This document shows positions 1 through 16,722 of a stretch of DNA of 64,000 bases, piece after piece; position 1 is the first letter of the stretch; every line of letters starts with the position of its first letter. The notes beneath the pieces were generated by a model. It saw only the letters and a list, made by a program, of their open reading frames with translations, made no database searches and was not told the origin of the DNA. The position numbers were made by a program, and so were the translations under genes. The DNA comes from Candidatus Alcyoniella australis (GTDB taxonomy: Bacteria > Lernaellota > Lernaellaia > JAVCCG01 > Alcyoniellaceae), in NCBI GenBank assembly GCA_030765605.1, contig JAVCCG010000098.1, positions 1 through 64,000 of the forward strand. The letters run 5' to 3'.

Positions 1-2318
1 AAGACCTTCAGGCAGGCTGAGCGCTCGAACTCCTCCGGTCGGTTGACACGTTCTAACCAGTGAGCCTGGGGCGCCTTTCCCTGATCTAAACGCGATTGAG
101 CAACGCGGGAGACCACGCCTTTCTTGGGCTGGTTGTACGCCTGCTGGAAAGCGAGTTGAGGGAAATCCTTGCTGTACCGGTCGATTGTTCCAGCTTCGCT
201 CTCCACAAACTGCTTCCATTCTGTCCAATCCGGCCCGAGCAGGCCTGACGTAGGTACACGTTTTTCTGCATCGATGAAATCGCGCACCAAATCGTAGACC
301 ATGCCGTGATTGACCTTGGCCTCGATAAAGCCCAGATCGCAGAGCGTTTGTCCGAGACGCTTCCACTGGGCCTCCTGCCGGACTGCCATCAGGTGGTGCG
401 GCAGTTCGGAGACCGTACGTTTCGGTGCACCCTGCCAGGGGTTATCCTTGTCCGGGTTGCCCTTGTCAAAGAAATAGTTGGCCAGCTCCTTGTGCGCGGC
501 CTGCGCGTCGGTTTCGTCCGGCAGGTAGCGCGCTCGCACAGCCTTGAACAGGTTGCGGTGGTAGAAATCAACGTACGGCCCGCGCTTGAGCAGGTAGGGT
601 CGCAGGCGGCGCAGCATGGGGAACAGGTCTTCGTCTTTATCCAAACCGGCGACCAGCTCCTTCAGCTCCGCCTCGCTGAGTCCGTTGCGCGAGACGGCAA
701 CCAGCGACATTGCTTTGCGAACCACTTGCCTGTCAAACTCGCGTTCGACCTGATCCAGCACCTGATCGAACAGGTCGTCCAGCCCCTCAGACGGAAACGC
801 CTTGATTCGCTCATTGAGCCGCTCGAACGAGCCGAAGCCACGCAGCTCCTCTAGCGACACCGCGAGGTAAAGCGGGTTGTCCGTGGCCGGGTTGTCGAGC
901 AGCAACTTAACTTGGTCATTGTCGAGCCGTTTGGCCGCCAATGAGGGGATGAGCCGAACGATCTCCCTCCGGTCGTCGATAGTGAGCGGCTCGACTTGCT
1001 TGATCTCCCAATCCCGCCGCCTTGCCTCCTGCGTCGTGATCGAGGGCTCCGCCCCGTCGTCAATTGTGCTTAGCACCACGCGCACGCCCGGCGGAAGCTC
1101 CGCGGGCAGCCAGTGCAGGTTGTCGGCCTGCGACCAGGCGTCGAACTGGTTCACGGCGTCGATGAGGAACACCGCCTTTTTGCCGTCAGGGATCTTTTTC
1201 AGAAACTCCTGAAACGTCATAGGCAGCTTGTTGGGGTCGGAGGGAATCAAGTCCTCAATATTGAATGCCCTCTGAAGCTCCAGGCAGAAACGGCGTAGCG
1301 TGGTGTAGAGACTCGTCGAGCCCGGCGATGCGCCGACGAAATGCGGCACGTCGAGCGCGTAGCCCTTGCCTTTCACGGAGTCGAGATAGAGCTTGCCCAG
1401 AATCGCCGATTTGCCGCAGCCGGAAGGCCCTGTGAGCAGCAGCGGTTTAGGCGAGTCGCTTTTTAGATACGATGCGAGGTCCGCCAGCAACTTCTCCCGG
1501 CCAACGAAAACCCGCAGCCGCGACTCGATGAAACGCTCGTGAAAGTCGCGCTCGTCGTCCAGCCATTCCTCGCCTTGCGGCAACGGCTCATCAACCTTAG
1601 CGCCCGCCGCCTGGAACTCGCGCTCTTCCTCTTCGAGCCAGTCGAACTTCCGGCAGCATCCTTCCCACAGGTCCTTTTCGACCTGCTCGCCGAACTCCTT
1701 GAGCCCTTCGACTCGACCATGAGTTCCGTCAGGATTCTCGTGTGCTGGATTCCATTGACACGGGTAACGGTCGAAGAGCGGCAGGTGATGATCGGCGATC
1801 TCTCTCTTGAGCGCGTCGAGTTTTTTCCTCAGATCGGGCGCGGCGTCAACGAATACCTCTGAGCGCAGCGGCTCGGGCACTTTCTTCAGAAACGCCGGGT
1901 CCCGGAAGTAGAAGAAGGCCAGGCTCTCCATCTTGGGATCGCGCAGCACGCCGTGGACGATCTCCAGCGCCGTGACCGAGTGCTCGCACAGCTCGGCGTC
2001 TTTGATCCAGCCGTACTTGGCCAGCGCCTCCGCCGGATGCGATTTGGGCACCCATCCGTAGCGCTCGCCCAGCAGCCCGATAAAGAAGGGGCGGCTCTCG
2101 TCGATAAGCTGAAGGCATAGGCCGAGCACCTGGTCGTTGTCAGCGTCCTGCTTGGTCACGCCCCAGCGCAGGTCGATGTCAACGAAGTAGATGCGGTGCC
2201 GCTCTAGCTTTTCCCGTAGCCCCGGGAAGACCGACCGCACCAGGTAGTCCCGCTCCGCCTGCATGTCGCGGAAGGTCGATGAGATGAAAACCCGGACCGT
2301 TTGCCATTTGCGGCGCAT
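1..2318 (-). CDS. DUF4062-NACHT NLR-like ATPase (3' end outside window)
   Basis: An uninterrupted frame of 772 codons runs leftward from ATG 2318, preceded by AAGGGGG at 5 nt, and leaves the window without a stop, so the C terminus is unseen. Residues 1 to about 170 form a DUF4062 domain with the hallmark VFISSTFRDMQAERD and IDLRWGV motifs, as in animal NWD1/TEP1/NPHP3-type proteins. A STAND/NACHT NTPase follows: Walker A GPSGCGKS at 297-304 and a Walker B-like VFLIDAVNQF near 385, then a winged-helix-like region. The family pairs a Rossmann-like N-terminal module with a signalling ATPase; in bacteria such architecture suggests a conflict or defence role (inference). It is the last gene of the leftward AAA operon, 162 bp after the zinc-ribbon gene, and a distant paralogue of the 9665 gene. 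The missing C terminus probably carries sensor repeats. Confidence 0.85.
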   Translation of the reverse strand, partial: MRRKWQTVRVFISSTFRDMQAERDYLVRSVFPGLREKLERHRIYFVDIDLRWGVTKQDADNDQVLGLCLQLIDESRPFFIGLLGERYGWVPKSHPAEALAKYGWIKDAELCEHSVTALEIVHGVLRDPKMESLAFFYFRDPAFLKKVPEPLRSEVFVDAAPDLRKKLDALKREIADHHLPLFDRYPCQWNPAHENPDGTHGRVEGLKEFGEQVEKDLWEGCCRKFDWLEEEEREFQAAGAKVDEPLPQGEEWLDDERDFHERFIESRLRVFVGREKLLADLASYLKSDSPKPLLLTGPSGCGKSAILGKLYLDSVKGKGYALDVPHFVGASPGSTSLYTTLRRFCLELQRAFNIEDLIPSDPNKLPMTFQEFLKKIPDGKKAVFLIDAVNQFDAWSQADNLHWLPAELPPGVRVVLSTIDDGAEPSITTQEARRRDWEIKQVEPLTIDDRREIVRLIPSLAAKRLDNDQVKLLLDNPATDNPLYLAVSLEELRGFGSFERLNERIKAFPSEGLDDLFDQVLDQVEREFDRQVVRKAMSLVAVSRNGLSEAELKELVAGLDKDEDLFPMLRRLRPYLLKRGPYVDFYHRNLFKAVRARYLPDETDAQAAHKELANYFFDKGNPDKDNPWQGAPKRTVSELPHHLMAVRQEAQWKRLGQTLCDLGFIEAKVNHGMVYDLVRDFIDAEKRVPTSGLLGPDWTEWKQFVESEAGTIDRYSKDFPQLAFQQAYNQPKKGVVSRVAQSRLDQGKAPQAHWLERVNRPEEFERSACLKV

Positions 2319-2338
2319 GGCGCCCCCTTGATTCAACT

Positions 2339-2353
2339 GCAATAGTTATCCCA
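2339..2353 (-). promoter_or_regulatory. possible sigma-54 -24/-12 element
   Basis: On the minus strand TGGGAT, five bases, then TTGCA gives the GG-N10-GC spacing of sigma-54 promoters, with a perfect -12 half and a weak -24 half. It sits just upstream of the DUF4062-NACHT gene at 2318. The predicted start near 2328 would leave only about 10 nt of leader, which is short, so this is tentative. It is worth listing because the operon itself has a far better sigma-54 site at 9441-9456. Confidence 0.3.
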
Positions 2354-2480
2354 AACAGCATAAGAATGCAAAGATCCACCAGCAGGACCACAGGATCTCG
2401 AGGCGTTCTCTCAATCAATTGATGAGGGCAATATCGATATCCAAATGATCAATACGCCCGCTCTTGTCGCACTTTTCCGG

Positions 2481-2687
2481 CTATTCCGTCCATCCTTTGA
2501 ACTCCATCTCGCCACTGCATACCGGGCATGAGCGCCTTTGGACTTCCATCAGGATCTCCTTTTGTCCCGGAGACTGATCGAACGCGCGGTAATGAAAGTC
2601 GTCCTCATCAAACTTGTATATCTTGTCCCGGCTCCTGATTTCATGGCCGCACTTGCCGCATTGATAAACAATATACGCTCTCCACAT
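2481..2687 (-). CDS. 68-aa zinc-ribbon protein
   Basis: A small protein with two CxxC pairs, CGKC near the N terminus and CPVC near the C terminus, separated by an acidic and aromatic linker (FDEDDFHYRAFDQ). This four-cysteine layout is that of a zinc ribbon, suggesting structural metal binding and perhaps protein or nucleic-acid contact. The start is supported by AAAGGAGC 6 nt before ATG. It follows the 386-aa gene by 12 bp inside the leftward operon, so it is probably co-expressed with the AAA and vWA proteins. No enzymatic motif is present and I do not recognise the family. It could be an adaptor of the complex (inference). Confidence 0.75.
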   Translation of the reverse strand: MWRAYIVYQCGKCGHEIRSRDKIYKFDEDDFHYRAFDQSPGQKEILMEVQRRSCPVCSGEMEFKGWTE

Positions 2688-2699
2688 CGCTTGCTCCTT

Positions 2700-3860
2700 T
2701 CATTTATTATTTTTAGCAATATTCTCTTTGTCGTTTTCTATGTCCAAGATGACGTCAATTATCCTACGGGACTGGGTCTCAAGCTTCGTCGAGGCCTTGC
2801 GCACTTCCGGATTCTCACCAAGATTTCCGGCGACCAGGTGCATGCGATTCACGTTGGCGAAAACCAGCTTGTGCAGCGGGACCTTGGTTTGCCTAGATCC
2901 CCATACCACCTCGGTGCGCAAGAATGCGCTGAAGGCTTTTCCCAACTTCGAAAACTGTCTCAAGGCAACGCGCGGGATATCGTTCAGAGCGCTGCCGGGA
3001 ACCCTTTTCAGGCAGGCCATAAATGCGACAATTGCCGGCTGCCTGTAGACCTTCTCAAAGAACTCGAAAAGATCGCCGCTGGCAACAGCTCGCAGCTCGC
3101 ACAGTTCGCCGCTCAGACACAGGTAGAGCAGCTCGATAGCACGCTGAAAGCAGGGCATATTGAAATGCCGCGCCGCCAAAACTCCCAGCCGTTGGTCCTC
3201 GTGCCAGGCCGCCTGGAACACGTGCCTGCCCAAGAGGTACAGCAGCTCGTCCGTTTGGCGATCGATGCGCCACTGGTCACCCTTTATCGCCCTTATTGCG
3301 GGAAGATGTTTCATTCGCTCACGAAACTGCGCAAGGCGCAAATAATAGGTTTCGTGCCCGGTTGACATGAGTTTAACAAATCTATCGTCATGCATTGGAT
3401 AATCCGGGCTGATGTATAAATCCTCGACGATCAACCCGTATTCCGACCAGTAATCACGGTGAATCCGGCACAGATAATATACCGGCATGTGTGTGGCAAG
3501 TTGTCGAACCTGAATGCTAAGATCGAATCCGTTGATGCTTATCAGGGCGGTCTTGATGGTATTTAGCTTCGTCAATGAAACCACGTGCTTCCCGAAATTG
3601 TCCCCCAACTCGAAATTTGCGCTGAGCAACGCGGCGATCATGCCCAAATCAAATAAGCTCCCCCCCTCTTGCTGCAGAACAAGCCTTCTTTTGTCATATG
3701 CTTTAATTTTTTCAATCAACGGTTTGAGGATTTTTTTTAGATCGCCGGAAGCCCTGGGGTAAACGTAATTCGTATATTGCCACCCATCGTAATCGCCCTC
3801 GGCGAGACTCTCGGTCTTGCTCATCGGATACTTCCATGGATCATCGTTTTGATAACTCAT
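2700..3860 (-). CDS. conserved-context protein of unknown function, 386 aa
   Basis: I do not recognise this protein. It has no signal peptide, no clear membrane segment and no nucleotide-binding motif. It looks like a soluble, mostly alpha-helical protein with many aromatic and charged residues in the first half and a basic, helical C-terminal third. The ATG at 3860 has GGGAGA 4 nt upstream and overlaps the end of the vWA gene by 20 bp, which indicates translational coupling. The reading frame is AT-richer than the flanking genes. Position between the vWA protein and the zinc-ribbon gene makes it a candidate component or substrate of the MoxR-vWA machinery; that role is inferred from context only. 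Confidence 0.8.
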   Translation of the reverse strand: MSYQNDDPWKYPMSKTESLAEGDYDGWQYTNYVYPRASGDLKKILKPLIEKIKAYDKRRLVLQQEGGSLFDLGMIAALLSANFELGDNFGKHVVSLTKLNTIKTALISINGFDLSIQVRQLATHMPVYYLCRIHRDYWSEYGLIVEDLYISPDYPMHDDRFVKLMSTGHETYYLRLAQFRERMKHLPAIRAIKGDQWRIDRQTDELLYLLGRHVFQAAWHEDQRLGVLAARHFNMPCFQRAIELLYLCLSGELCELRAVASGDLFEFFEKVYRQPAIVAFMACLKRVPGSALNDIPRVALRQFSKLGKAFSAFLRTEVVWGSRQTKVPLHKLVFANVNRMHLVAGNLGENPEVRKASTKLETQSRRIIDVILDIENDKENIAKNNK

Positions 3861-6024
3861 CTTGTCTCCCAGTTACTATCCTTGCTCGCGTGTTTTTTTT
3901 TCTTTCCTTAATGCAAGAAGCCACGTACACGCTGATCTGTTCGGCAACGGCGACGTAGTCTTCAAGTTTGTCCTTGGATACTGTTATCACCTTGTCCAAC
4001 TGGTCTTCTAATTTTGTGCGTCCTTCGACTCCCAGGGCCACCAGCGTTGTGTGCAGCTTGCCCGCAAGGTTTTCATAGGCAGATTTAAAGCAAGAGATTA
4101 CTTCCTCTCGTCCGCTTTTATCCGTATCAAAGGATCTGTTCCAGCGGCAATCGGATATTAGAATCAGGTAGATCATTTTTCCCTTGGCGATTTTCGTCGC
4201 CTCCTCGAGCATGAATGCAATGGACAACGCGTCCGATTGCACTCCCGTTCCACTATCCGGCAGCGAGACCAAGGTCCGCACAGCATCTTTTCGACCGAAT
4301 GAAGGCGTCTTGTGCGGATGAAACATCCACTGCACAAGCGGCCCGGAGACGCCGTTTCTTATCTGTCCGCTGTGATACAGGCCCGCAAGAACCTGGATCT
4401 GACTTTTGATCGTGGAATCCAACCAGGCAGCAGCCAGTACTTTCAGCATTCCCATCTGTCTATCGTTTAGCGATCCGGAACCATCGCAGGCGATCAGTAG
4501 GACTGGCCGTCCTCGCATGTCAGCACGCTGGTGAATACGGTAGCGCTTGAACACGACCTGGGAGAACGTGGCCAGGGCCAGACGTGACGGGTCAAGCGAC
4601 CCGCTGGTGCAAAGCCTCTCCGTTTCCGGGATCTGCTTGATGTTTGGATAGAGAACCAGTTTCAGTGCATCGGCAACGGGCCGGGAGCGATCGAGAAGTC
4701 TTTCGTAGGCGGGAAGATCGTCAGAGAGTTCGACCGCTCTATCGAAAATCTCGCCTCCGGCCATATGTTCCGCGTTCAGCCGGACCTGCACCTCGTGTCC
4801 GTCGGTCGGACTTCCCTGAATCGGCCCCTGTCTGAAGGCCGACTGCCTCATCGTTTGTTCGATAAGATCCGATCGCATATCCTCCCACTCACTACTCTGC
4901 TTCCCGGCCCTATCAACGGCGTTGCTGAATTCCTTTAGTATTTTTTCAGTGTTGCGGGAAAGGCCGCTTTCGCCATTGTCCGGCCAATCAGGCGGTTGGA
5001 GGGTTCCAGGATTCTGTGCTTCCTTGCCTTGTTCGATCATTTCGGCAATCTGTGCAGGCAAACTCGGTCCGTCTGTCAACGATGGCGGCCGGGGATCATT
5101 CAGGGGCGGGAACTCATCGTTCTCCTGGCGTGCTTGCTTCTCGTTGGTGAACTTATATCCTTTTCTTTCGCCGATACGTCCGATGATGTGCTCGAATTCC
5201 TCTATCGAATCTATCTCCTCCGAAATTGGTTCATCCGGCTTGGGTTCCGGAAGATACCTGGCGATCGTTGCGCAAAGGCTTTTTACCCATTGAACGCATA
5301 TTTCCGGCAGCTTGGAATAGTCGTTCTGCGATAGAAGCGTAAAAAAGGGATCCGAGGTTTCCGTCATATCCTCAAGCATTTGACGGGTCATCGGATGAAG
5401 ATTCTGGTCCCTCCAATTGGGCAGAACGTCTCCGAAAAGAACTACCGCAGCTATCATTTCCCTCAGGGTATTAAAATCCATTTTCTGCTGTGAGGCCAAA
5501 AATAAACGGTAGATCTCGATGGTTGCCATGGCCGGTATGCGGGATAGATCTTCGATAAAAAGCCGCTCTTGAACGGTTTTGGTCACGGTCATGGCAACAG
5601 CATGGTAACTCGCAGGATCGACGTTCACCCCGACCCCTGGCTCGGGGCACTCCAGGGATTCTTTTAGCAGTTCGATTAAAAATCTTGCCTCGGCCCTTGA
5701 CTTGTATTCGAGGTAGCCGGTCATCCCAATCGCTGCAAATACGGCAAGATTGGAAGGGTATGTTGTATAGCAGGGACTCAGTTGCGGTTTCTCATGCGGT
5801 TGAAATACATCTTCCGAGGTTCCGGACGCGATGTTCGCTGAGAGCCTTTGAATCTTTTTAATCGTCCCGTAGAAAATGCGTTGGGCGGAGAGCCGGGTGT
5901 AATAATCGATGTTGCTTTTGAAGGCGTCTCCGATGTTGACGCCCGCCCAATCCGACTTGGCCCGACGTTTACGGTGAACATATGAATATCCATGACTCGG
6001 AGGGGTGGCGTGCGCCATGCTCAT
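3841..6024 (-). CDS. vWA domain protein, partner of MoxR ATPase
   Basis: A 727-aa protein whose C-terminal third is a von Willebrand A domain. The metal-ion-dependent adhesion site is visible as DGSGS at 514-518, after the hydrophobic strand VLLIAC, with later strand MIYLILISDC supplying another acidic residue. The first 450 residues are helical and not recognised, with an acidic or proline-rich linker around 285-350. vWA proteins encoded next to MoxR AAA+ ATPases typically act with them as a metal-dependent chaperone or effector pair. The start at 6024 has AGGGG 7 nt upstream and lies 11 bp after the MoxR stop. The 386-aa gene overlaps its end. In this island it is probably a core component of the conflict system (inference). 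G+C is visibly lower than in the window's core genes. Confidence 0.85.
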   Translation of the reverse strand: MSMAHATPPSHGYSYVHRKRRAKSDWAGVNIGDAFKSNIDYYTRLSAQRIFYGTIKKIQRLSANIASGTSEDVFQPHEKPQLSPCYTTYPSNLAVFAAIGMTGYLEYKSRAEARFLIELLKESLECPEPGVGVNVDPASYHAVAMTVTKTVQERLFIEDLSRIPAMATIEIYRLFLASQQKMDFNTLREMIAAVVLFGDVLPNWRDQNLHPMTRQMLEDMTETSDPFFTLLSQNDYSKLPEICVQWVKSLCATIARYLPEPKPDEPISEEIDSIEEFEHIIGRIGERKGYKFTNEKQARQENDEFPPLNDPRPPSLTDGPSLPAQIAEMIEQGKEAQNPGTLQPPDWPDNGESGLSRNTEKILKEFSNAVDRAGKQSSEWEDMRSDLIEQTMRQSAFRQGPIQGSPTDGHEVQVRLNAEHMAGGEIFDRAVELSDDLPAYERLLDRSRPVADALKLVLYPNIKQIPETERLCTSGSLDPSRLALATFSQVVFKRYRIHQRADMRGRPVLLIACDGSGSLNDRQMGMLKVLAAAWLDSTIKSQIQVLAGLYHSGQIRNGVSGPLVQWMFHPHKTPSFGRKDAVRTLVSLPDSGTGVQSDALSIAFMLEEATKIAKGKMIYLILISDCRWNRSFDTDKSGREEVISCFKSAYENLAGKLHTTLVALGVEGRTKLEDQLDKVITVSKDKLEDYVAVAEQISVYVASCIKERKKNTRARIVTGRQDELSKR

Positions 6025-6035
6025 CAGTTTTCCCC

Positions 6036-7067
6036 TTAGAACAGGTTTTCTCCCAGCGCGGGATCTTCGTCCGGATCATTTTGGCGCAGGCCGAATACTT
6101 CTTTCAGCACGCTGGCGACCACCTTCTGGTCTTCCATGGCCGCATTCCCGAGCATGGTCAATCCTGCGACCTGTTGCAGGCTTAGATGGGGCAGCGATTT
6201 TGCCATCCTGAGGAATGTCAAATAACCGTAGATCGTGGGAGGTGCCAGGGATTGAAGCTCTCCTTCGGCCCTGTGGCGTCGGATGATGTTGCCAAGCTTT
6301 ACGACGTTGATGATAATTTTCATCTCGTCCTCGTCATCGATACCCTCGCTTCCATTTCCATTGGCGAAAAGATGGCGAAGGATCTCCACCTCCTGCTCGG
6401 CTGAAAGATAATCGAGTGTCAGATTGACCGAGAAGCGGCGCTTCAGCGCGTCGTCCAATGTCACCAGGGTATGCGTCGAGTCGTTTTCCGCCTGGTAGTT
6501 GCTGTCCGCCACCCAGGCGACCCCTGATCCGTCGATATAGCGCCCGTTGGAGAGCCGCACATATCCTTTGGTCATCAGGTTCAGCAGCCCACCCTGGACG
6601 CTGGATGAGTGCACGCGTCCCATCTCCCGCACCCAGACCAACGGATATTGATGATCTTTCAATTTCTCGGCGTCCCCCAGCGCCCTGACCAGGCTGCTGT
6701 CCTCGTCAAATGTGGAGCCGTCCTTAAGCGCGCGCCTTTGGAAAAGCTCTCCGGGCGCCTCGTAGGTGGCCATCTCGATGTGGTAGATCTTCAGTTTCTT
6801 TGACGGCAAACCCAGCTCATCGCAGATCGTATTGAAGTTGTCAGGAACAGTGTGCATCGCCTCGAGCAACGAGCTTTTCGCGGTCCCGGTCGGACCGGAC
6901 AGGTGGATGAACTCGTGATGAACGATGGCATAGACCAATGTCTCGAGCTGCAGCTTCATGATGAACAGCGGGTGACTGCCCGGAGCGGGCAGAAGTTGGA
7001 TCAGATCCGTGGGACCCGCCTGGCGAAGTTCGTCCTTTTCCGATATTCTGAAGACTTGATTGGCCAT
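6036..7067 (-). CDS. MoxR-family AAA+ ATPase with altered Walker B
   Basis: A 343-aa single-domain AAA+ ATPase. Walker A is GPTGTAKS at 58-65, the sensor-1 region is VAWVADSN around 183-190, and DDALKRRF near 205-212 is the arginine-finger region typical of MoxR ('LDRF'-like) proteins. The Walker B segment reads LVWVREMGR: the usual Asp of the DE pair is Arg147 while Glu148 is kept. MoxR proteins remodel partner proteins, usually with a vWA protein, which is the next gene here. The start has AAGGAGA 7 nt upstream and follows the upstream ATPase stop by 16 bp. It is therefore the second gene of the operon. Family assignment is firm; substrate and function in this operon are not known. Confidence 0.9.
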   Translation of the reverse strand: MANQVFRISEKDELRQAGPTDLIQLLPAPGSHPLFIMKLQLETLVYAIVHHEFIHLSGPTGTAKSSLLEAMHTVPDNFNTICDELGLPSKKLKIYHIEMATYEAPGELFQRRALKDGSTFDEDSSLVRALGDAEKLKDHQYPLVWVREMGRVHSSSVQGGLLNLMTKGYVRLSNGRYIDGSGVAWVADSNYQAENDSTHTLVTLDDALKRRFSVNLTLDYLSAEQEVEILRHLFANGNGSEGIDDEDEMKIIINVVKLGNIIRRHRAEGELQSLAPPTIYGYLTFLRMAKSLPHLSLQQVAGLTMLGNAAMEDQKVVASVLKEVFGLRQNDPDEDPALGENLF

Positions 7068-7083
7068 GTTGCGTCTCCTTGTT

Positions 7084-9333
7084 TCAATAGGGGTCGATCA
7101 CGAGATTGCCGTCTTGTCCGGCCCGAACACGTATTTTTTTCCCTGCCAGATCGGTTTTTGGGTTTAACGCGCATAGCAGGGCGTCGGATGCCGCGACGCG
7201 TCCGAGTTCCAACAGGCCCCGGGCGCCGAAAGCTCCTGCACCTTTCCCCATGCACGCCACGAGGAACTCCCCGATTCCGGGTTCGAGTTCAACGGCTGCA
7301 ATTGGTATCTGAAGATGCTCTGTAGCCGAGCGGACTGCGGAGCGCACCGCGCGCTCGACAATGGTTGCCAGGGCCTCGCTCGTCAGGGGCTCGAAAAGGA
7401 TCGGCGTGCCGACGCGGCTGAGGAAGGCGCTCGAAAGAACTCTCTTGATCTCGGCTGACACGCGGAAGGCGATCTCCTGCTTGGAGCGTTCGCCAAAGCC
7501 GATCGACCTGTATAGCGCCTCGTCCATGCCCTCGGGCAGGTTCATGGTAAAGGAGAAGATAATGTTCGAGCATGAGAACATTGCGCCCGTCGCGCTTTGG
7601 GCCTCGCCCGTCTCGAGGACCTGGAGAAACAGGTCGGCCAGGGCGCTGCGAACCGAGGGGACGGCGTGGTCCAGGTCGCTGATCTCGAGCAATACGCCCT
7701 GGTGATGCTTGGCAGCCTGCTCCAACCGTCCGCTTTGATGTGAGCCCACTATTCCACGACCGGAGCCGAGCAACTGGGCCGCGGCCGTATGGTAATCGGG
7801 CATGCTCGCCGCATCGATGTTGACGTATGGAACATTCAACGAATCAGCGAGCATCACCGCGCTTGCGGATTTTCCGGTCGCAGGGGTGCCCTGTGCGCAA
7901 TAGCGAACCGGCTGATGCTCAGGGCGGGTCAGGATCTCCGCTCGTAATCGTTCGACCAGCATGCGTAGAGCCGCATCCTGTGCGAGCAGCTTCTCTTGCA
8001 AAAAACAGAGCAGGCCCGGGTCGGTCAGAACGCGGGTGAAGTGCTCCTGTACAGCGGGCGCGCGACTGACGCGGGGCTTGGCGCTCAACCCGGCCAGGGA
8101 TTCGGAAAGAGCGCTGACCGATGTTACGAACGAGGCGCTCGATTCAGTTAAGCAGCTTTTTCCTGACGACCATTGGCTTACAGCCCTTCCGACGACTGCG
8201 GGCAGAAAACGTTTTTGACCCGCGGGATCTTTTTCCCGCAGCACGCTTATAACCGTTTGGCACAGCCTGGCCTGCGCAGATTGCGGAATGCCGCCGGCAA
8301 AACGGGATTGGGACCAGATTGCAAAACCAGCGAGATCCTCGAGCGAAACCTCGGGAACCCGCATGACCACAGGGCAGAGCGGATCGCTTTGTCCGCCTTG
8401 CCCGCCGTGAAACACCCCCTGGAGCTGTTCATAGGTGCCTGTAAACAACACCGGCGTGTTGGCCGAAGACAGCGCAGCCAACATGGCCTGCATCTCGTTG
8501 CCCAGCTCATAGGGGCTTGTCCCGAGGCTGATGCGTGACGCTGGCACCACAGCGGTTCCCGGTGCCTCCCTGGCAATATCAACTATCGCCTTGGCGTTGA
8601 TCGCCGGCAGCAGACATCGGCCGAAAACGCGGCCGGACTGCTCCCCGGCCTTGGATAAGGCTGAGAGGGCGTACTCCAGGCATGTCTCAAACGGCGAGGC
8701 TACGGCGATGCACAGGGACCCGGACATGAAATCGCATAGCTGCTCGGCCCAGCGATTGACCTCTGAGCCTGAATCGATATTCCAGGAATAGACCGGCTGC
8801 AAGATCTGCGAGTGCTTTTCAAACAGCTTGTCCAGGTCGCTTTGGCTGCGCGGCGCAGGGACCTGCTTTTGAAGATCTTTGGCCAACTCGTCGATTCTCT
8901 TCAACTCGTTGAGCAGGGCGTTCGCCCGGACGGCTGAAAGGGGAACCGCCTTGGCCTGGAGCTCCAAGCAATATGAATAGTCGCTGGTTTTTTTCCAAAT
9001 TGAAGGGGCGAGCACGCGGCATTTATTGCCCAGGGAGGACAGGGATCTGCAAAACATCCCCATAGAGATTCGTATGTTCTCGGGCGCCCTGAGCACTTCA
9101 ACCTTCAACGAGATGATTGAATCGCCCATTGATTCGCCGATAATCGATAGGATTCCTCGCTTGCTCTTGTTGCTCTTCTCAAACGCTGTGAATACCCGTC
9201 CGCCTCGGGACACCTCCACTTGCAAGCCATTGATGTGTTTGCATAGGTCGGCAATTTGCTGCAGGGCCAGTTCAGCGGAGATCCCAGCGTCCTGGGAATC
9301 GTTTTTGGCATCAATGATGGGGTCTAGTTCCAT
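7084..9333 (-). CDS. ClpA/B-like AAA+ ATPase, first gene of leftward operon
   Basis: A 749-aa protein. The C-terminal half matches a ClpA/ClpB second ATPase domain: Walker A GTPATGKS at 482-489, the central segment GIVGSHQSGRL, a sensor region IIFSFTMN, the FLSRVGTPILFEPL motif that aligns with FLNRID of ClpB, and a small C-terminal domain with GAFGARGLLEL. Walker B is altered, EISDLDHA, with Ser552 where the metal-binding Asp should be. Residues about 190-400 look like a second, degenerate AAA domain lacking a P-loop (inference). No Clp N-domain and no ClpP-binding loop are evident. It is the first gene after the sigma-54 promoter at 9441-9456, with about 100 nt of leader. A protein-remodelling role within the MoxR-vWA system is likely. 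Confidence 0.82.
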   Translation of the reverse strand: MELDPIIDAKNDSQDAGISAELALQQIADLCKHINGLQVEVSRGGRVFTAFEKSNKSKRGILSIIGESMGDSIISLKVEVLRAPENIRISMGMFCRSLSSLGNKCRVLAPSIWKKTSDYSYCLELQAKAVPLSAVRANALLNELKRIDELAKDLQKQVPAPRSQSDLDKLFEKHSQILQPVYSWNIDSGSEVNRWAEQLCDFMSGSLCIAVASPFETCLEYALSALSKAGEQSGRVFGRCLLPAINAKAIVDIAREAPGTAVVPASRISLGTSPYELGNEMQAMLAALSSANTPVLFTGTYEQLQGVFHGGQGGQSDPLCPVVMRVPEVSLEDLAGFAIWSQSRFAGGIPQSAQARLCQTVISVLREKDPAGQKRFLPAVVGRAVSQWSSGKSCLTESSASFVTSVSALSESLAGLSAKPRVSRAPAVQEHFTRVLTDPGLLCFLQEKLLAQDAALRMLVERLRAEILTRPEHQPVRYCAQGTPATGKSASAVMLADSLNVPYVNIDAASMPDYHTAAAQLLGSGRGIVGSHQSGRLEQAAKHHQGVLLEISDLDHAVPSVRSALADLFLQVLETGEAQSATGAMFSCSNIIFSFTMNLPEGMDEALYRSIGFGERSKQEIAFRVSAEIKRVLSSAFLSRVGTPILFEPLTSEALATIVERAVRSAVRSATEHLQIPIAAVELEPGIGEFLVACMGKGAGAFGARGLLELGRVAASDALLCALNPKTDLAGKKIRVRAGQDGNLVIDPY

Positions 9334-9664
9334 GGACCTTGCCTGTGTTTGAATTCAACAGGAGCTTCTACCTCCAGGGCGGATCGCCCGGCTTTCTTTA
9401 CCTGGGTTTTCCGTTGACTTACTTTCCTATTAAACCGAATTGCATTAGATGTGCCAATGGCTGCCTAGACAGGGTTGTCCCTTAATTTCAATAGGTTATC
9501 AAACGCCCGGGTGCTTTATTGCGTTGAATTACCCGCCTTTGCCCGCAGGAAATGGCGATTTAATCCTGATGGTGATAGCATTACAAGACTTTATCCATCG
9601 ATCGGCGTGCACATGGATGTGGATCTATTCGATGTGACAAGTTTGGCGCAATGAGGGGGGCACG
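9334..9664. other. 331-bp divergent intergenic region
   Basis: This gap separates the leftward AAA operon from the rightward NLR-like operon. It holds the sigma-54 site described separately. On the plus strand a weaker GG-N10-GC pattern occurs at 9509-9522, but only its -12 half resembles the consensus. I see no open frame with a ribosome-binding site, no tRNA and no strong hairpin. The composition is AT-richer than the coding DNA around it, as expected for a regulatory region. Confidence 0.6.
9441..9456 (-). promoter_or_regulatory. sigma-54 (-24/-12) promoter for the AAA operon
   Basis: Read on the minus strand, TTGGCACA, four bases, then ATGCA matches the RpoN consensus YTGGCACG-N4-TTGCW at 11 of 13 positions, with the invariant GG and GC spaced by exactly 10 bp. 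Predicted transcription begins near 9430 and runs into the ClpB-like gene at 9333. An RpoN promoter implies that the operon is silent until an AAA+ activator remodels the polymerase. An NtrC-like gene lies in the divergent operon, but it lacks the usual sigma-54-contacting loop, so the activator may be elsewhere. Confidence 0.7.
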
Positions 9665-12600
9665 ATGAGTACGACGGTAACTGCCTGGAAAGCCCGTCCG
9701 ATGTTTGTGAGCTCGACGTTCCGCGACATGCAGGCGGAACGCGATCGTTTGCGCAATTTTGTCTTCCCGCTGCTGGAGGAGCGGCTGCGCGAGCGGCGGG
9801 TCCACCTGGAGCCGATCGACCTGCGCCAGGGCGTGGAAACCTCTGCTGTGCCAGACGAGGCCGGCCGCGAGATGCTTGTGCTCAAGGTGTGTCTCGACGA
9901 GATCAAGCGTAGCCGCCCGTTTCTGTTCGTGCTGCTCGGCGACCGCTATGGTTGGGTGCCACCGGAAGGCCGCATGGCCGCCGCTGCGCAGGAGGAGGGC
10001 TTCCAGGCCGACCTCGCGGGCAAGAGCGTGACTGCGCTGGAGGTCGAGTTCGGCATCCTGAAGAAAGACGCGGAGCAGAAACGCCGGAGCTTCTTCTTCT
10101 TCCGCGATCCGCTGCCGTGTCAGGACCCGGACTTCAACGACGAGTTCTCGCCCGATCCAGCCGTGCGCTCCGGACACGCGAAGCTGGAAGCACTGAAGAC
10201 GAAAATCGCCACCGACCCGGAACTCGGAGCACGCGTTCACCACTACCAAGCGGGGTGGGACGGACGCGTGATTCTTTCGGAGGAATGGGACAAGCAGGTT
10301 GTCGACCTGATTTGGCCTGACCTCGAAGAAGAGACGCGGGCCCTGGCCGCGCAGCCGCCGCCGACCTGGGAGGAGGCCGAGCGGCAGGCGCTGGCCGAGT
10401 TCGTCGAGCACCGTTCGTTGGGTTTCGTCGGGCGCGAGGAGATAACGCAGCAGTTGTCAGACGTGGCGCGAGGCGACGAGGCGCAATCCCGTCTGGGCGC
10501 GTGCATCACGGGCGGGCCGGGCTCGGGCAAGAGCGCGCTGTTCGCGCACCTGTATAGCAAGCTGACCAGGGCCCAGGACGCTCAGCTCGTTCTGGCCAAC
10601 GCGGCGGGGATCAGTGCGCGCAGCGGCTCCGTGGATGCGATGCTGCGGCGTTGGATTCAGGAACTGGCCGACTTCCTCAATATGGCCAACCCGTTGCCGG
10701 AGAAGGCGACGGAAGAGGACGTGGACAATACATTCTATTCGCTGCTGAGCCGGGCTTCCCAGCAACTGCGCGTTGTGGTGCTGATCGACGCGCTCAACCA
10801 GTTTGAGCAAAGCGTGCGTGCGCAGCACCTGACCTGGTTCCGACCCAAGTCCTGGCCTGCCAACGCGCGGATTATCGCCTCATCGCTGTCGTGTCAGCCG
10901 GCGGACATTCTCGCGCGGTCCGAAGGCGTCGCGCGCTTGGAACTTCAGCCCCTGGCTGAGCGGGATGCCGAGCAGATCGCACGTAACGTGTGGAAACGCT
11001 ATCACCGGCAGTTCAACAACGAGGTCTATCGGGCACTGTGTGAAAAGCGGACATCGGATGGCGCGGCGGCATTGGGCAATCCGCTCTGGCTCAACCTGGC
11101 GCTGGAACAGCTGAACTTGCTCGATGCGGACGACTTCAGCCGAGCGGAGCAGGAGTTCACGGGCTCGCCGGAGGAGCGGTTGCAAGCCATGCAGGTTGAC
11201 GTGGCGCGCCGCCTGCCGGCCGAGGTCGAGGGGCTGTTCGACTGGATGCTCGCACGCGCGGAGAAGGTCCACGGCGTGGGCTGGACTCGGGCGTTCACGG
11301 CGGCGATCGCCCTAAGCCGCTTCGGCTGGCGGGAGAGCGATTTGCTGACACTGGTGCCGAGCCTGGCGCCGGCGCTTTCTCCGGGCTGGGCAGAGACGGA
11401 CTACGACGCCCTGCGCCTGGCCTCGCTGCGCCGGGCGTTTCGCGGGCAGGTGGTCCGGCGTGGAACGTTGGAGCAGTGGGACTTCTTTCATGCTCAGATG
11501 CGGGCGTCGGTCTTACGGCGCTGTGTGGATAATGATTTGGCCGCGAAGAGACTCCACGGTTTGATCGCCGACCATCTGCTCAGCCTGCCTGATGACGACT
11601 CGCTGCGCGAGAGCGAGACCATGCACCACCTGGTGGAGGCTGACGATCAGCCTCGCGCGGCACATTTCTATGCAACAGTGGTCCATGCGAATCCGGCGAC
11701 CGAGACGCTTGCCCGGCAAATATTAGATGCCACGGAGTCCGATTCACGGGATGCAGTGGAGTGGATTATCGGCCTGCTCGTCCAGCCGGGCTTGGCGTCT
11801 GTGCGGGTTGCCGCGCTCTGCAATCGTTTTCAGTTCGACCTTGAGGATGCACTGGCTATTACGGGCAATCTAGTGCCCCGACTTCGCTTGCTGATATCTA
11901 CGCGGGACGCAGGCGAGCGTCTGGCAACGGCCGATCCCAGCAACACCGGCTGGCAGCGGGACCTGTCCGTCAGCCATAACAAGCTGGGCGACGTGCTGCG
12001 GGCGCAGGGCGACTTGGCCGGGGCGCTGCGGGAATACCGGGCGGCTTTGGAGATTAGCGAGCGTCTGGCAACGGCCGATCCCAGCAACGCCAAACGGCAG
12101 CGGGATCTGTCCATCAGCCATGAAAAACTGGGCAACGTGCTGCGGGCGCAGGGCGATCTGGCCGGGGCGCTGCGGGAATACCGGGCGGATTTGGAGATTA
12201 GCGAGCGTCTGGCAACGGCCGATTCCAGCAACGCCGGCTGGCAGCGGGACCTGTCCCTCAGCCATATCAACCTGGGCGACGTGCTGCGGGATCAGGGCGA
12301 CCTGGCCGGGGCGCTGAGGGAATACCGGGCGAGCTTGCAGATTAGCGAGCGTCTGACCACGACCGATCCCAGCAACACCGGCTGGCAGCGGAACCTGTCC
12401 GTCAGCCATAGCAAGCTGGGCGACGTGCTGCGGGATCAGGGCGACCTGGCCGGGGCGCTGAGGGAATACCGGGCGAGCTTGCAGATTAGCGAGCGTCTGA
12501 CCGCGGCCGATCCCAGCAACGCCGGCTGGCAGCGGGACCTGTACATCAGTTACTGGAGAATGGCTGGTATCAGCGAGAATACGGGACAGGGTGACGCGAT

Positions 12601-12715
12601 GAATTTGTATCGGAAGGCTTACGAGCAATTATCGGGTATGAAAAAGCGCGGCATCATGCAACCGGCGGACGAAAAGTTTCTGACGCGATTGCAAACGAAG
12701 GTCGGCGGCAGGTAA
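9665..12715 (+). CDS. DUF4062-NACHT protein with C-terminal tandem TPR-like repeats
   Basis: A 1016-aa protein. Residues 1-170 are a DUF4062 domain with MFVSSTFRDMQAERD and IDLRQGV motifs. A NACHT/STAND ATPase follows, with Walker A GGPGSGKS at 283-290 and a Walker B-like VVVLIDALNQFEQ around 370-380, then helical winged-helix regions. From residue 751 there are five 48-aa TPR-like repeats, the first four nearly identical in protein and DNA. This is the layout of an NLR-like sensor: N-terminal effector-like module, oligomerising ATPase and repeat sensor. A strong GAGGGGGG lies just before ATG. It heads the rightward operon and is divergent from the MoxR-vWA operon. A defence or self-recognition role is inferred. 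The DUF4062 and NACHT parts are distantly homologous to the 2318 gene. Confidence 0.9.
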   Translation: MSTTVTAWKARPMFVSSTFRDMQAERDRLRNFVFPLLEERLRERRVHLEPIDLRQGVETSAVPDEAGREMLVLKVCLDEIKRSRPFLFVLLGDRYGWVPPEGRMAAAAQEEGFQADLAGKSVTALEVEFGILKKDAEQKRRSFFFFRDPLPCQDPDFNDEFSPDPAVRSGHAKLEALKTKIATDPELGARVHHYQAGWDGRVILSEEWDKQVVDLIWPDLEEETRALAAQPPPTWEEAERQALAEFVEHRSLGFVGREEITQQLSDVARGDEAQSRLGACITGGPGSGKSALFAHLYSKLTRAQDAQLVLANAAGISARSGSVDAMLRRWIQELADFLNMANPLPEKATEEDVDNTFYSLLSRASQQLRVVVLIDALNQFEQSVRAQHLTWFRPKSWPANARIIASSLSCQPADILARSEGVARLELQPLAERDAEQIARNVWKRYHRQFNNEVYRALCEKRTSDGAAALGNPLWLNLALEQLNLLDADDFSRAEQEFTGSPEERLQAMQVDVARRLPAEVEGLFDWMLARAEKVHGVGWTRAFTAAIALSRFGWRESDLLTLVPSLAPALSPGWAETDYDALRLASLRRAFRGQVVRRGTLEQWDFFHAQMRASVLRRCVDNDLAAKRLHGLIADHLLSLPDDDSLRESETMHHLVEADDQPRAAHFYATVVHANPATETLARQILDATESDSRDAVEWIIGLLVQPGLASVRVAALCNRFQFDLEDALAITGNLVPRLRLLISTRDAGERLATADPSNTGWQRDLSVSHNKLGDVLRAQGDLAGALREYRAALEISERLATADPSNAKRQRDLSISHEKLGNVLRAQGDLAGALREYRADLEISERLATADSSNAGWQRDLSLSHINLGDVLRDQGDLAGALREYRASLQISERLTTTDPSNTGWQRNLSVSHSKLGDVLRDQGDLAGALREYRASLQISERLTAADPSNAGWQRDLYISYWRMAGISENTGQGDAMNLYRKAYEQLSGMKKRGIMQPADEKFLTRLQTKVGGR
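11915..12634 (+). repeat. five tandem 144-bp repeats encoding TPR-like units
   Basis: Units begin at 11915, 12059, 12203, 12347 and 12491, each starting with codons for ERL and exactly 144 bp apart. The first four differ from one another at few positions; the fifth diverges after about 55 bp. Each unit encodes one 48-aa helical hairpin ending in GDLAGALREYRA-type TPR sequence. The near identity suggests recent unit duplication or gene conversion, so copy number is likely to vary between strains. Confidence 0.9.
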
Positions 12716-12770
12716 GACCGAAGAATAAGGATATATCCACGGTCCGATTGCTGTGAATTGGGAGGCGCAA

Positions 12771-14489
12771 ATGAAGGTTCGGACATTGAAATTCGTCGCG
12801 GGATCCGACGACGGAGTTCCGGTCGTGTGCGAGGATTTTGGTCAGAACGAGGTGATGAGGATAATTGAGGAGAACAATTCGGACCCGCCCGCGCTCTATG
12901 TCGTGAATCCGGACGGCCTGGCAGAGCTTCGCAGATTGACCAGGCACGGCTACGTGGCAGACCTTGGAAAGCAAAGCCCGCCCATGCGCAGGGACCTGTT
13001 CAAATGCTTCCAGGGATGCGGGCAAATTCCGCTGATCGAGGGCAAATATAAAAGCTCGGGCAGGCTCGAGCAGGGTGTGACGAGCTTCTTAAATAGAGTC
13101 CACGAGATCAGGCCGGGAAAAGCCGGCAAGCGCCCGCCGATCTATATTCTCGGCACCACGGAAGCGATCTTCAACGAGCTGGTGATAAAGGGCAAGACCA
13201 AAGATGCGGCGGCCGCCAGGGGCGGCGAGGACGATCAGGCCACGTTAAACCGCATCCTGGAGCAGATGCTCGGAGAATGTGCCGGAGTCAACCCCGAGGA
13301 TCAAGAGCGGATCGATGAGCTGGCGCAGGTCTTCATCGGCAACTCCATTGAGGCACAGGCCGTGCGCTGGCTGGCGCTGCGCGCGGCCCAGGACGACGTG
13401 TCCGTGCTGATTCTCGGGGAGTCGGGAACCGGCAAGGAGATCGTGGCGAACATCATCCATGGCTATAGCCGCCGGGGGAAAAGGCAGGACATGCTTTTTC
13501 CCCTGAACTGCGCCGCAATCAGCCCTTATCTGTTTGAGGCGATTCTCTTCGGCCAAGAGAAGATTTGGCATGACTCGCCCGCACGGGACGGCATCTTGAC
13601 CAAGGCCAACGGCGGCACCGTGTTCCTCGACGAGATCGGCGACCTTTTGCTGGACCACCAGACAAAGCTGCTGCGTTTTTTATCCACCGGCAAATACCTG
13701 CCCATCGGCGCGACCAAAGAGCGTTCATCCGACGTGCGGATCATCGCAGCCACCAACCAGGATCTTTTCAGGATGGTGCTGGCCAAGGAGTTCCGCGAAG
13801 ACCTCTATTACCGCCTACTGCCGATGCTGATCCGCACGCCGGCCCTGCGAGACCATGCCCAGGATATCGCCCACCTAGCCCAGCATTGCTGGAGGAAAAT
13901 TTGTCAAGATCCCAGCGCTGTCTTGCCAAAAGATGTTCTATCTGAGCTTCAAATGCATAAATGGCCGGGAAATATCAGGGAGATGAAATTTATTCTGAAG
14001 AGCATGCACGTGATGTTCCCCGGACAAAAGCTGAGCCGCAAGCACTTTCGGATCGCATTGCAATACCATTACGGCCCGCAATTCGCGCCCAGCACCACGG
14101 AGGAGCTGCTCGACGCCGGTCTCCCCTGGCTTGAGACAATACGCCATTTACATCGCGTGGAGGAGCTTGTCCGAGCGTGCAAGGTATGCGTCGGCCCCCT
14201 ACTCTCAGCCTCCGAAATGAGCAAGCAGACCGTTCTGGCAGTCAAGGGCCAGTTGGGATATCACCTTTTCGAACTGGAGCGCCTGCTGGAATCTCGGGAC
14301 CTGTTAGATAATGACGCAATGTGGAACCTGGTCGTCCAGTTCAAGGAGAGAGTGGCGGAGTTGAGGGAATGCCTGCCGGAAAACGAGAGAAGGGCCGGGC
14401 GACTGTGGAACAAGGAAACAAAACGCGCCCACAAGAAAACCGCGTCGATGCTGGGCAAGACGATCGAGAGGCTGATTTCAGGAGCTTGA
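12771..14489 (+). CDS. NtrC-like AAA+ protein lacking GAFTGA and HTH
   Basis: A 572-aa protein starting at ATG 12771; a GGGAGG 5 nt upstream favours this start over the in-frame GTG at 12753. Residues 1 to about 180 are an unrecognised alpha/beta domain. The rest is a sigma-54-activator-type AAA+ domain: Walker A GESGTGKE at 216-223, Walker B GGTVFLDE at 281-288, sensor I RIIAATNQD, the FREDLYYRL arginine-finger region and WPGNIREMK sensor II. The loop between LFGQEK and the Walker B, where GAFTGA belongs, reads IWHDSPA and is shorter. No Fis-type DNA-binding helix-turn-helix follows; the C-terminal 130 residues are charged helices. It follows the NLR-like gene by 55 bp. It is probably a signalling or remodelling ATPase of the island rather than a classic activator. 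Confidence 0.85.
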   Translation: MKVRTLKFVAGSDDGVPVVCEDFGQNEVMRIIEENNSDPPALYVVNPDGLAELRRLTRHGYVADLGKQSPPMRRDLFKCFQGCGQIPLIEGKYKSSGRLEQGVTSFLNRVHEIRPGKAGKRPPIYILGTTEAIFNELVIKGKTKDAAAARGGEDDQATLNRILEQMLGECAGVNPEDQERIDELAQVFIGNSIEAQAVRWLALRAAQDDVSVLILGESGTGKEIVANIIHGYSRRGKRQDMLFPLNCAAISPYLFEAILFGQEKIWHDSPARDGILTKANGGTVFLDEIGDLLLDHQTKLLRFLSTGKYLPIGATKERSSDVRIIAATNQDLFRMVLAKEFREDLYYRLLPMLIRTPALRDHAQDIAHLAQHCWRKICQDPSAVLPKDVLSELQMHKWPGNIREMKFILKSMHVMFPGQKLSRKHFRIALQYHYGPQFAPSTTEELLDAGLPWLETIRHLHRVEELVRACKVCVGPLLSASEMSKQTVLAVKGQLGYHLFELERLLESRDLLDNDAMWNLVVQFKERVAELRECLPENERRAGRLWNKETKRAHKKTASMLGKTIERLISGA

Positions 14490-14745: not shown

Positions 14746-15638
14746 TCAGGCGGCCAAACGATAGCTGTGATGCAGACCGTTCAGGATCGGTAGGGAAACC
14801 AGCGCGCCTTTGCCTTCAAGATTCCGGCTTTGGGTAATATCCTCGGCTGGCACGGAAATCCTTTTGACTCCCTGGTGGTATCTCTCGTGGTTGTAGAAGT
14901 CTCGGTATTCACTCAAAACACAAATCAGATGCCGCTCATTGAAAATCAGCATGTGATCCAGGCATTCCCGTCGTAGCGTACCGATCAATCGTTCGCAATA
15001 TGCGTTCGCGTTGGGTGCTTCAAATGGAGTCGAAATTCCCCGGATATTCATTGTATGGACCAACCAGTAGTCCAACGAAGAGCGGCAGGAAGCGGTTTTT
15101 CCATTGAATCTGACCCTAACAGGCTTCCCCAACTGACCAAAGATACCGTCGTTATCATGGATAAGAAATTTGGGAGATTCATCCCAGGTGGCTTGACGAA
15201 TTTGCTGCTTCAACCAATCCAGGGTCGGGTGTTGTGTCACTGTAATGTAAACGATCCGTCGGCTTTCCAGTTCCATGATGACGAGGATGTAAATCTGGGC
15301 GAAGAAAAAGGTGACTTGAACGCAGAAATCGAAGGACCAGATGGCGGATGCATGGTTTTTCAGAAAGGTGCTCCATCGCTGGATATCCCGGGGAGGCTTC
15401 GACTTATTGATCCGGTATCGGTCTACGGTGCTCGGGGCATGCACAACACCGAAAAGCTCTTTCAGCATTCCGGCGATTCGCCTGCCGCTGAAGTCCGGGT
15501 AATCGGCGGAAATGTGCTTGATAAATTCGATATGCTCCTTGGTAATGGTCGGTCTGCCCGCTTTCTTTTTCGGGTTCGACAGCTTTCGCCAATAGTCCTT
15601 GAAGCGCCTTTGGTTCCATCGTACGACAGTTTCCGGTT
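14746..15638 (-). pseudogene. rve-type transposase, 5' end lost
   Basis: The frame encodes a DDE integrase core: WSFDFC supplies the first Asp, LIHDNDGIFG the second and NANAYCERLIGTLRRE the catalytic Glu, followed by YHQGV and a C-terminal tail typical of IS481/IS3-like transposases. Upstream of the apparent ATG at 15468 the same frame stays open and reads like the helix-turn-helix part of the enzyme (KKKAGRPTITKEHI) until 15639, where another element's terminal repeat begins. No proper start codon or N terminus remains, so the gene was cut by that insertion and is probably inactive. Downstream, 14490-14745 holds nothing I can assign. Confidence 0.7.
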
Positions 15639-15663
15639 TGACCTTGCCCCGGTTTAGTGGACA
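15639..15663. repeat. IS3-type terminal repeat
   Basis: The 25-bp stretch beginning TGACCTTGCCCCGG and ending TAGTGGACA has the form of an IS3-family end and lies directly after the stop of the neighbouring orfB remnant. A related end, TGACCTTCCCCCGAAAGTGG, occurs at 17080. The junction at 15639 marks where this element interrupts the integrase-type transposase. Confidence 0.55.
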
Positions 15664-15672
15664 GGTATTTCG

Positions 15673-16098
15673 CTAAGCTGCCACGCTGGCAGCCTGTTGT
15701 GCAATGCGTTCATACTCGGCCGGGCTGAGATAGCCCAGGTACGAGTGACTACGCTTGCGGTTATAGAAAACCTCGATGTATTCGTGGATCGCAATGCGGG
15801 CCGCCTCGCGGGTCTGCCATGCACAGCGGTCCTCGAGCTCGGATTGCAGCGTGCTGAAGAAGCTCTCGACCACCGCATTGTCCCAGCAGTCGCCCTTGCG
15901 GCTCATGCTGCACACGATCCCCGCGGCGTCCAGCGCACACCGATAGGCTCGGCTCGCGTACTGGCTCCCCCGGTCCGAGTGGTGCAGCAGCCCCGACGAC
16001 GGACAACGCTGCATAAGCGCCATTTGCAGCGCGCTCAGGGCCAGGAGTGATTCCGATCTTTGATTGAAGCCTACCCGATCATTTTCTGTTTGAGTCAA
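15673..16098 (-). pseudogene. IS3-family orfB transposase, 3' fragment
   Basis: The last 120 or so codons of an IS3 orfB: the second catalytic Asp lies in LLHHSDRGSQYAS, the Glu in DNAVVESFFSTLQSEL, and the conserved YNRKRSHSYLGYLSPAEYE end is intact. The first catalytic Asp and the whole N-terminal half are missing; the frame upstream of about 16045 no longer resembles the family, so the break point is there. It is a decayed copy that cannot transpose by itself. The terminal repeat at 15639-15663 is its right end. Confidence 0.8.
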
Positions 16099-16149
16099 AT
16101 ATCCTCTGGTAGTCTTGTCCGGTTAAAGATGTATAAAGATCCTCTTCCT

Positions 16150-16722
16150 TCATAGTACCGTCTGAACACAGGAATCGAAATGTTTTGATAGCCTCGCAAA
16201 CACAAACCTGATTCCGGCCACATGCGATTCGACACTCTCAAAAAGACCCCAGAGCCCTTTTATTATTTGGTTTACCAGCATTTCCCGGTAATCGATGGTC
16301 TCAGGAGTGACCTTACCGGTAAAATAATCATGTCTGGAAGAATGATACTCCCACTCCATTGCGTTTCCCAATTCCTTCAAGTCTATCCCATCAATTGGCT
16401 CAAGTTCTTTTACTCGTTTTAGCGCCATTATCAACTGAAAGCGAAATTCCGAATCATGCTTACGTTGCCCTTCCAGACTATCCGCGACATCATGACATAT
16501 CTCATGTATGATAAGGTGTTGAACTTGGTAATCATGTTCTAATCCCGGTTTTACTCTGATTGCCATACACTTTCTGTCACAGCGCCCATAAGCATTATCG
16601 CCCACGAACGTCGGTGCTAACCTCCATTGATTGTCAGGGTCCCAATTTGGGAATAGGGTTTCTCTTATCCATTTGTAGATTTTCTGTTCCCGATCAGTCA
16701 GACCGCTTCGTTCCGCATACAT
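16150..16722 (-). CDS. putative HExxH zinc metallopeptidase-like protein
   Basis: A 190-aa soluble protein containing LIIHEICHDVADS, an HExxH motif preceded by hydrophobic residues, as in zincin metallopeptidases and SprT- or IrrE-like proteins. Three cysteines or so occur near RCDRKC, which might bind metal too. The third zinc ligand cannot be assigned. The gene sits between transposase remnants and has lower G+C than the core genes, so it looks like cargo or a passenger brought with mobile DNA. The start at 16722 is the only reasonable ATG but lacks a strong ribosome-binding site. Function beyond the motif is not supported. Confidence 0.55.
   Translation of the reverse strand: MYAERSGLTDREQKIYKWIRETLFPNWDPDNQWRLAPTFVGDNAYGRCDRKCMAIRVKPGLEHDYQVQHLIIHEICHDVADSLEGQRKHDSEFRFQLIMALKRVKELEPIDGIDLKELGNAMEWEYHSSRHDYFTGKVTPETIDYREMLVNQIIKGLWGLFESVESHVAGIRFVFARLSKHFDSCVQTVL

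What the first reader, a model, noticed from the sequence alone, without database searches (positions are those of the whole stretch)
1..14489. Candidate new conflict system: MoxR-vWA and ClpB-like AAA operon bracketed by two DUF4062-NACHT proteins
Seen: a leftward operon (ClpB-like AAA, MoxR, vWA, unknown 386 aa, zinc ribbon, DUF4062-NACHT) and a divergent pair (DUF4062-NACHT-repeat, NtrC-like AAA). Known: MoxR-vWA systems and NACHT/STAND proteins both occur in bacterial conflict and defence. Inference: two NLR-like sensors plus four AAA-type ATPases encoded together suggest a regulated, energy-demanding defence or self-recognition response. I do not recognise this combination as a named system.
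Basis: partly seen in the sequence, partly recalled or inferred. Interest (0 to 1): 0.88.

Follow-up and report, generated by a model that had tools for sequence, protein, structure and literature searches.

The report
Sigma-54-linked MoxR-vWA-Clp operon with NADase NLRs
The window holds a rare, conserved four-gene bacterial machine for remodelling proteins, preceded by a sigma-54-type promoter and, in this genome only, flanked by two immune-type proteins predicted to destroy NAD+; the machine looks real and undescribed, but a defence role is unproven.

Summary
The genes are there as described, but the unit of eight is not. What recurs is a four-gene operon in fixed order: ClpA/B-type AAA+, MoxR, vWA and a family without known relatives. 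It is complete or nearly so in three genomes of two phylum-level groups and partial in a fourth. A sigma-54 type (-24/-12) promoter motif lies upstream of the first gene in all four loci (combined p about 1e-6). An NtrC-family AAA+ gene is divergent in three.

The DUF4062-NACHT proteins are accessory. A sister locus keeps the core in a genome with no detectable DUF4062, and similar proteins occur elsewhere without the core. DUF4062 was reported in 2026 to be a TIR-like NADase; both copies here keep the likely catalytic Glu, so they are predicted abortive-infection effectors. The NtrC-like protein here lacks the GAFTGA loop and a recognisable HTH, so it is not a standard sigma-54 activator; the G582 counterpart, fused to a metallo-beta-lactamase fold, is.

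Best reading: an inducible MoxR-vWA-Clp remodelling module, a new variant of the MoxR-vWA systems, armed in this lineage with NADase NLRs. Neighbouring genes show no known defence system. Antiphage function is plausible, not shown.

The parts
7084..9333 (-). ClpA/B-type AAA+ protein (749 aa): N-terminal 440 aa without P-loop, then one ClpA/B-like AAA+ domain (Walker A GTPATGKS, Arg finger, sensor-2 GAR; Walker B region EISDLDHA lacks the usual DE). First gene of the core operon.
6036..7067 (-). MoxR AAA+ (343 aa), variant P-loop GPTGTAKS, Walker B region REM
3841..6024 (-). vWA protein (727 aa): N-terminal region without family match, linker, C-terminal vWA with intact MIDAS
2700..3860 (-). 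386-aa protein, no known family; conserved DYW, WHEDQRLGV and LLYLCL..ELCELR motifs; fold not resolved
2481..2687 (-). 68-aa zinc-ribbon-like protein (two CxxC pairs), accessory
3..2342 (-). DUF4062 (TIR-like)-NACHT protein, truncated by contig end; likely start ATG 2318; likely catalytic Glu codon 1962-1964
9441..9456 (-). sigma-54 type -24/-12 motif TGGCACATCTAATGCA, 107 nt upstream of the ClpB-like start codon; best match in the whole window
9665..12715 (+). DUF4062 (TIR-like)-NACHT-TPR protein; likely catalytic Glu codon 10040-10042
12753..14489 (+). NtrC-family AAA+ (578 aa; ATG also at 12771) with unknown N-terminal domain, no GAFTGA loop, C-terminus without recognisable HTH
14746..17492 (.). 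transposase (rve) remnants and a SprT-like gene bordering the locus

Best explanation
The core is an inducible protein-remodelling module. Shown: four genes (ClpA/B-type AAA+, MoxR, vWA, 386-aa protein) in constant order, a sigma-54 type promoter motif in front of the first, and usually a divergent NtrC-family ATPase with a varying N-terminal domain. Inferred: a signal activates a sigma-54 activator (the neighbouring protein in G582; another one in trans in the window genome, whose neighbour lacks the sigma-54 contact loop). The MoxR-vWA pair, with the Clp-type ATPase and the 386-aa protein, then forms a complex that remodels a specific client. In the window lineage the module has gained two DUF4062-NACHT proteins, predicted NLR-like NADases. 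One sits last in the same-strand gene series and may be induced with it; the other is beside the NtrC-like gene. Their NADase activity would kill or arrest the cell when triggered.
For: Same gene order in G000 (window), G006 (L009 plus L004, sharing a 23-nt overlap at the contig ends) and G582 (L097), at 45-69% identity per protein; partial in G270. A -24/-12 motif lies upstream of the ClpB-like gene in all four: window p 0.0007, G270 0.0017, G582 0.0067, G006 0.075, Fisher 1e-6. G582 has a divergent 876-aa MBL-fold plus sigma-54 activator protein with a GAYTGA loop. The first gene's AAA+ domain matches Clp/Hsp104 family chains. MoxR and vWA partners. DUF4062 as NADase: PMC13174449; P0001 matches the human TEP1 TIR-like domain at 7e-40 with the likely catalytic Glu aligned.
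Against: No experiment. The window's NtrC-like protein lacks GAFTGA (24 of 24 other activators with a readable loop have a GAFTGA-like one), so its link to the promoter is unclear. G270 has no detectable MoxR (contig ends inside the ClpB-like gene) and no adjacent NtrC gene. The G006 promoter match alone is weak. Only four loci were found. The client, the signal and the role of the 386-aa protein are unknown.
Confidence: 0.55

Rival explanations
1. Housekeeping or stress maturation system, not defence: like NorQ/NorD or CbbQ/CbbO, the MoxR-vWA pair plus a Clp-type helper activates or repairs a cellular enzyme under sigma-54 control, and the NLR-like genes are chance neighbours in a variable region.
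For: The core recurs without DUF4062 proteins (none in G006); core flanks are ordinary genes in G006 and from 17.5 kb on in the window, with no PADLOC hits. Known MoxR-vWA pairs insert cofactors (NorQ/NorD, PMC9976466, abstract).
Against: No client enzyme is encoded in the operon; very patchy distribution; NACHT proteins lie beside the core in both members of the class, the window and G006 (P0012); transposase remnants border it.
Confidence: 0.3
2. The eight genes form one integrated conflict system, with two NLR sensors driving the AAA+ machinery.
For: Compact divergent arrangement with short gaps; NADase-NLR at the end of the operon and at the head of the divergent unit; DUF4062 in antiphage defence (PMC13174449).
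Against: DUF4062-NACHT and zinc ribbon are not in the sister loci (the G582 contig ends 0.2 kb past the core); DUF4062-NACHT proteins stand without the core in G000:C41, G002:C38 and G104:C101.
Confidence: 0.15

Closest known systems
MoxR-vWA ternary systems of Kaur et al. 2020, FtsH-ternary and beta-propeller subsystems (PMC7159879)
   Same: MoxR with GXXXTAKS-type P-loop, a vWA protein with a long N-terminal region, and (FtsH type) a further AAA+ component with one active ATPase domain after a longer N-terminal part
   Different: The extra AAA+ is ClpA/B-type, not FtsH-type; no beta-propeller, VMAP, iSTAND or EAD domain; a fourth conserved 386-aa protein; sigma-54 type promoter and divergent NtrC-family gene
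NorQ/NorD, RavA/ViaA and CbbQ/CbbO MoxR-vWA pairs
   Same: MoxR AAA+ with a vWA partner encoded next to it
   Different: No client enzyme in the operon; additional Clp-type ATPase and unknown protein
RtcR-rtcBA (sigma-54 controlled RNA repair operon)
   Same: NtrC-family protein with a special sensor domain, divergent from a sigma-54 dependent operon (as in G582)
   Different: Operon encodes AAA+ and vWA proteins, not RNA ligase and cyclase; the window's NtrC-like protein lacks the sigma-54 contact loop
DUF4062 TIR-like NADases: Swarozyc and human TEP1 (PMC13174449)
   Same: DUF4062 domain with the likely catalytic Glu; DUF4062-NACHT order as in TEP1
   Different: NACHT and TPR parts instead of the Swarozyc auxiliary domain; no vault context; activity untested

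Membership tests
FtsH ternary MoxR-vWA system | third component with two FtsH-type AAA+ domains, the first inactive | tested here: not met
   The only recognisable ATPase domain is ClpA/B-type (TIGR02639 E 5e-19; PDB hits of the Clp/Hsp104 family). The N-terminal part has no P-loop; whether it is a dead AAA domain is not resolved.
FtsH ternary MoxR-vWA system | MoxR with GXXXTAKS P-loop | tested here: met
   GPTGTAKS in all three orthologues
FtsH ternary MoxR-vWA system | vWA fused to large N-terminal all-alpha domain | tested here: inconclusive
   N-terminal region of about 400 aa matches no family; its fold was not modelled
beta-propeller MoxR-vWA system | bpMoxR family | tested here: not met
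   14.6 bits against a cut-off of 27, although the profiles align over full length (hhalign E 4e-5)
[quoted passage not shown]
   The vWA region runs close to the C-terminus and Pfam finds no propeller
VMAP and iSTAND ternary systems | VMAP or iSTAND third component | tested here: not met
   No Pfam match in the operon's core proteins to any such domain
Sigma-54 activator (bEBP) | GAFTGA loop contacting sigma-54 | tested here: not met
   Window P0007 has IWHDSPA in its place; the G582 counterpart has GAYTGA; the G006 stretch is missing from its assembly
Sigma-54 activator (bEBP) | C-terminal DNA-binding HTH | tested here: not met
   No HTH family match in P0007; its C-terminus is conserved in G006
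DUF4062 TIR-like NADase | DUF4062 domain over curated cut-off | tested here: met
   50.1 and 41.2 bits against 24.7
DUF4062 TIR-like NADase | catalytic Glu | tested here: met
   E127 of P0001 aligns with the second Glu of SVTEMEV in TEP1 11gz_A, which I assign to E1008 from the construct's end at residue 1113 (inference); the matching residue in P0006 is E126
DUF4062 TIR-like NADase | NAD+ hydrolysis | not testable with these tools
   needs purified protein
Antiphage defence system | location among known defence genes | tested here: not met
   No PADLOC hits in nine neighbouring window ORFs; the left side is a contig end

The most novel reading that the evidence does not exclude
A sigma-54 inducible immune operon in which a MoxR-vWA-Clp complex senses or remodels an invader-related client and licenses TEP1-like DUF4062-NACHT NADases made from the same induced gene series, coupling transcriptional induction, AAA+ remodelling and NAD+ depletion in one locus.
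Probability: 0.2. Interest if true: 0.85.

Novelty: new variant of a known kind. Interest (0 to 1): 0.6.

Why it matters
It adds an apparently undescribed type to the MoxR-vWA systems, with a Clp-type partner, a new conserved protein family and a promoter motif that makes its induction directly testable. It also places TEP1-like NADase NLRs next to that machinery, which would make a link between AAA+ remodelling and NAD+-depleting immunity testable.

Tried and rejected
Collection scans: genome contigs with the MoxR alignment returned only the sister contig; three viral-contig scans found nothing; plasmid tblastn of the vWA, MoxR and 386-aa proteins found nothing. Considered and dropped: P0007 as RtcR-type CARF regulator, because the PADLOC RtcR/PspF model scores about 400 bits on ordinary activators and 238 on P0007, and its N-terminus matches no solved structure. 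Considered and dropped: P0007 as the operon's sigma-54 activator, because of the missing GAFTGA loop. The structure of the 386-aa protein failed (pLDDT 47, no fold match). The repeated GCAATTCAATTGC elements in the G006 intergenic region were not found as a clear family in the window, so they are not used.

Full report
Observation. The eight genes are present at the stated places. The window begins at the first base of its contig, so the left DUF4062-NACHT gene is cut. Pfam confirms DUF4062, NACHT, TPR, Sigma54_activat and AAA_2 domains, and finds nothing in the vWA and 386-aa proteins. The vWA assignment rests on the MIDAS motif and on a low-confidence model of the C-terminal 298 residues, whose best PDB matches are dominated by vWA domains.

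What recurs. A MoxR profile matched only the window genome and G006 among 386 genomes spread over the domain, so the system is rare. G006 is a second genome of the same class; its contig C375 has the same length as PMZC01000214.1, 'Deltaproteobacteria bacterium isolate fen_1099'. In G006 the MoxR, vWA and 386-aa genes are syntenic. Another contig carries the NtrC-like N-terminus divergent from the ClpB-like gene, and the two contigs share a 23-nt end. A profile of the ClpB-like N-terminus then found G270 and, in the same phylum, G582. G582 has the complete operon in the same order, at 48, 58, 49 and 46% identity, with a divergent gene for a metallo-beta-lactamase-fold sigma-54 activator. In G270 the contig ends inside the ClpB-like gene and no MoxR is found.

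Promoter. The consensus TGGCACN5TTGCW has one match with a single mismatch in the 64 kb window, at 9441-9456 on the operon strand, 107 nt before the ClpB-like gene. The best site in the upstream region of each of the four loci was compared with dinucleotide shuffles: window p 0.0007, G006 0.075, G270 0.0017, G582 0.0067; Fisher 1e-6. The position weights were mine and were set after the window match had been seen, so the window p-value is the least independent; G270 and G582 were found and scored later with the same weights. The opposite strand gives no signal in three of the four loci.

Regulator. P0007 keeps the Walker and lid features of the NtrC family but has IWHDSPA where 24 of 24 other activators with a readable loop have a GAFTGA-like one, and it has no HTH match. 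Its unusual C-terminus is conserved in G006. It is therefore not a standard sigma-54 activator. The promoter may be served by another activator, of which the genome has many, or P0007 may act differently. The G582 counterpart has the loop.

AAA+ proteins. The first gene's AAA+ domain belongs with ClpA/B/C and Hsp104. Its Walker B region reads EISDLDHA (EVSDLDHA in G582) and that of MoxR reads REM, in place of the usual DE-containing motif, conserved in all three orthologues. Reduced or unusual hydrolysis is possible; this is inference.

NLR-like proteins. DUF4062 was reported in 2026 as a TIR-like NADase family in antiphage defence (Swarozyc) and in human TEP1 (PMC13174449, a preprint). P0001 matches the TEP1 domain structure 11gz_A at 7e-40, with the likely catalytic Glu aligned. 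P0006 keeps it too. These proteins are not part of the conserved core: G006 has no DUF4062 match (genome 84% complete), and DUF4062-NACHT proteins elsewhere in this genome and in others lack MoxR-vWA neighbours in the stretches examined. G006 has instead a convergent NACHT gene (P0012).

Surroundings. Right of the locus are transposase remnants and a SprT-like gene, then ordinary genes without PADLOC hits. GC falls to 52-53% at 2-6 kb and 14-18 kb against about 63% beyond, which fits acquisition of parts of the locus.

Verdict. A real, rare and apparently undescribed MoxR-vWA-Clp operon with a conserved sigma-54 type promoter motif, plus accessory NADase NLRs in this lineage. It is a new variant of the MoxR-vWA systems. 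Defence is plausible from the NLRs, not demonstrated for the core.

Noticed in passing
L077:2341-5658 (G000:C41): A third DUF4062-NACHT-TPR protein (1105 aa) in the same genome, without MoxR or vWA homologues in the 14 kb fetched.
   Followed up: partly
L078:6154-11735 (G002:C38): DUF4062-NACHT protein fused to an FGE-sulfatase domain, next to a NACHT-FGE-sulfatase protein.
   Followed up: no
L004:2-2506: Convergent NACHT protein after the core in G006; its N-terminus holds an RNALTH stretch that resembles a HEPN RNxxxH motif (by eye); weak PADLOC matches to Avs1b and STAND_TPR.
   Followed up: partly
L009:651-905: Repeated GCAATTCAATTGC-type elements between the NtrC-like and ClpB-like genes of G006, possible activator binding sites.
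   Followed up: partly
L009:3048-3620: In G006 the ClpB-like frame runs into a phage integrase domain at the 23-nt overlap; likely assembly chimera, or an integration.
   Followed up: partly
L097:1135-3762: Metallo-beta-lactamase fold fused to a sigma-54 activator, divergent from the core in G582: a possible sensor type.
   Followed up: partly
window 7084-9333 and 6036-7067: Both AAA+ proteins of the core have altered Walker B motifs that are conserved across phyla.
   Followed up: partly
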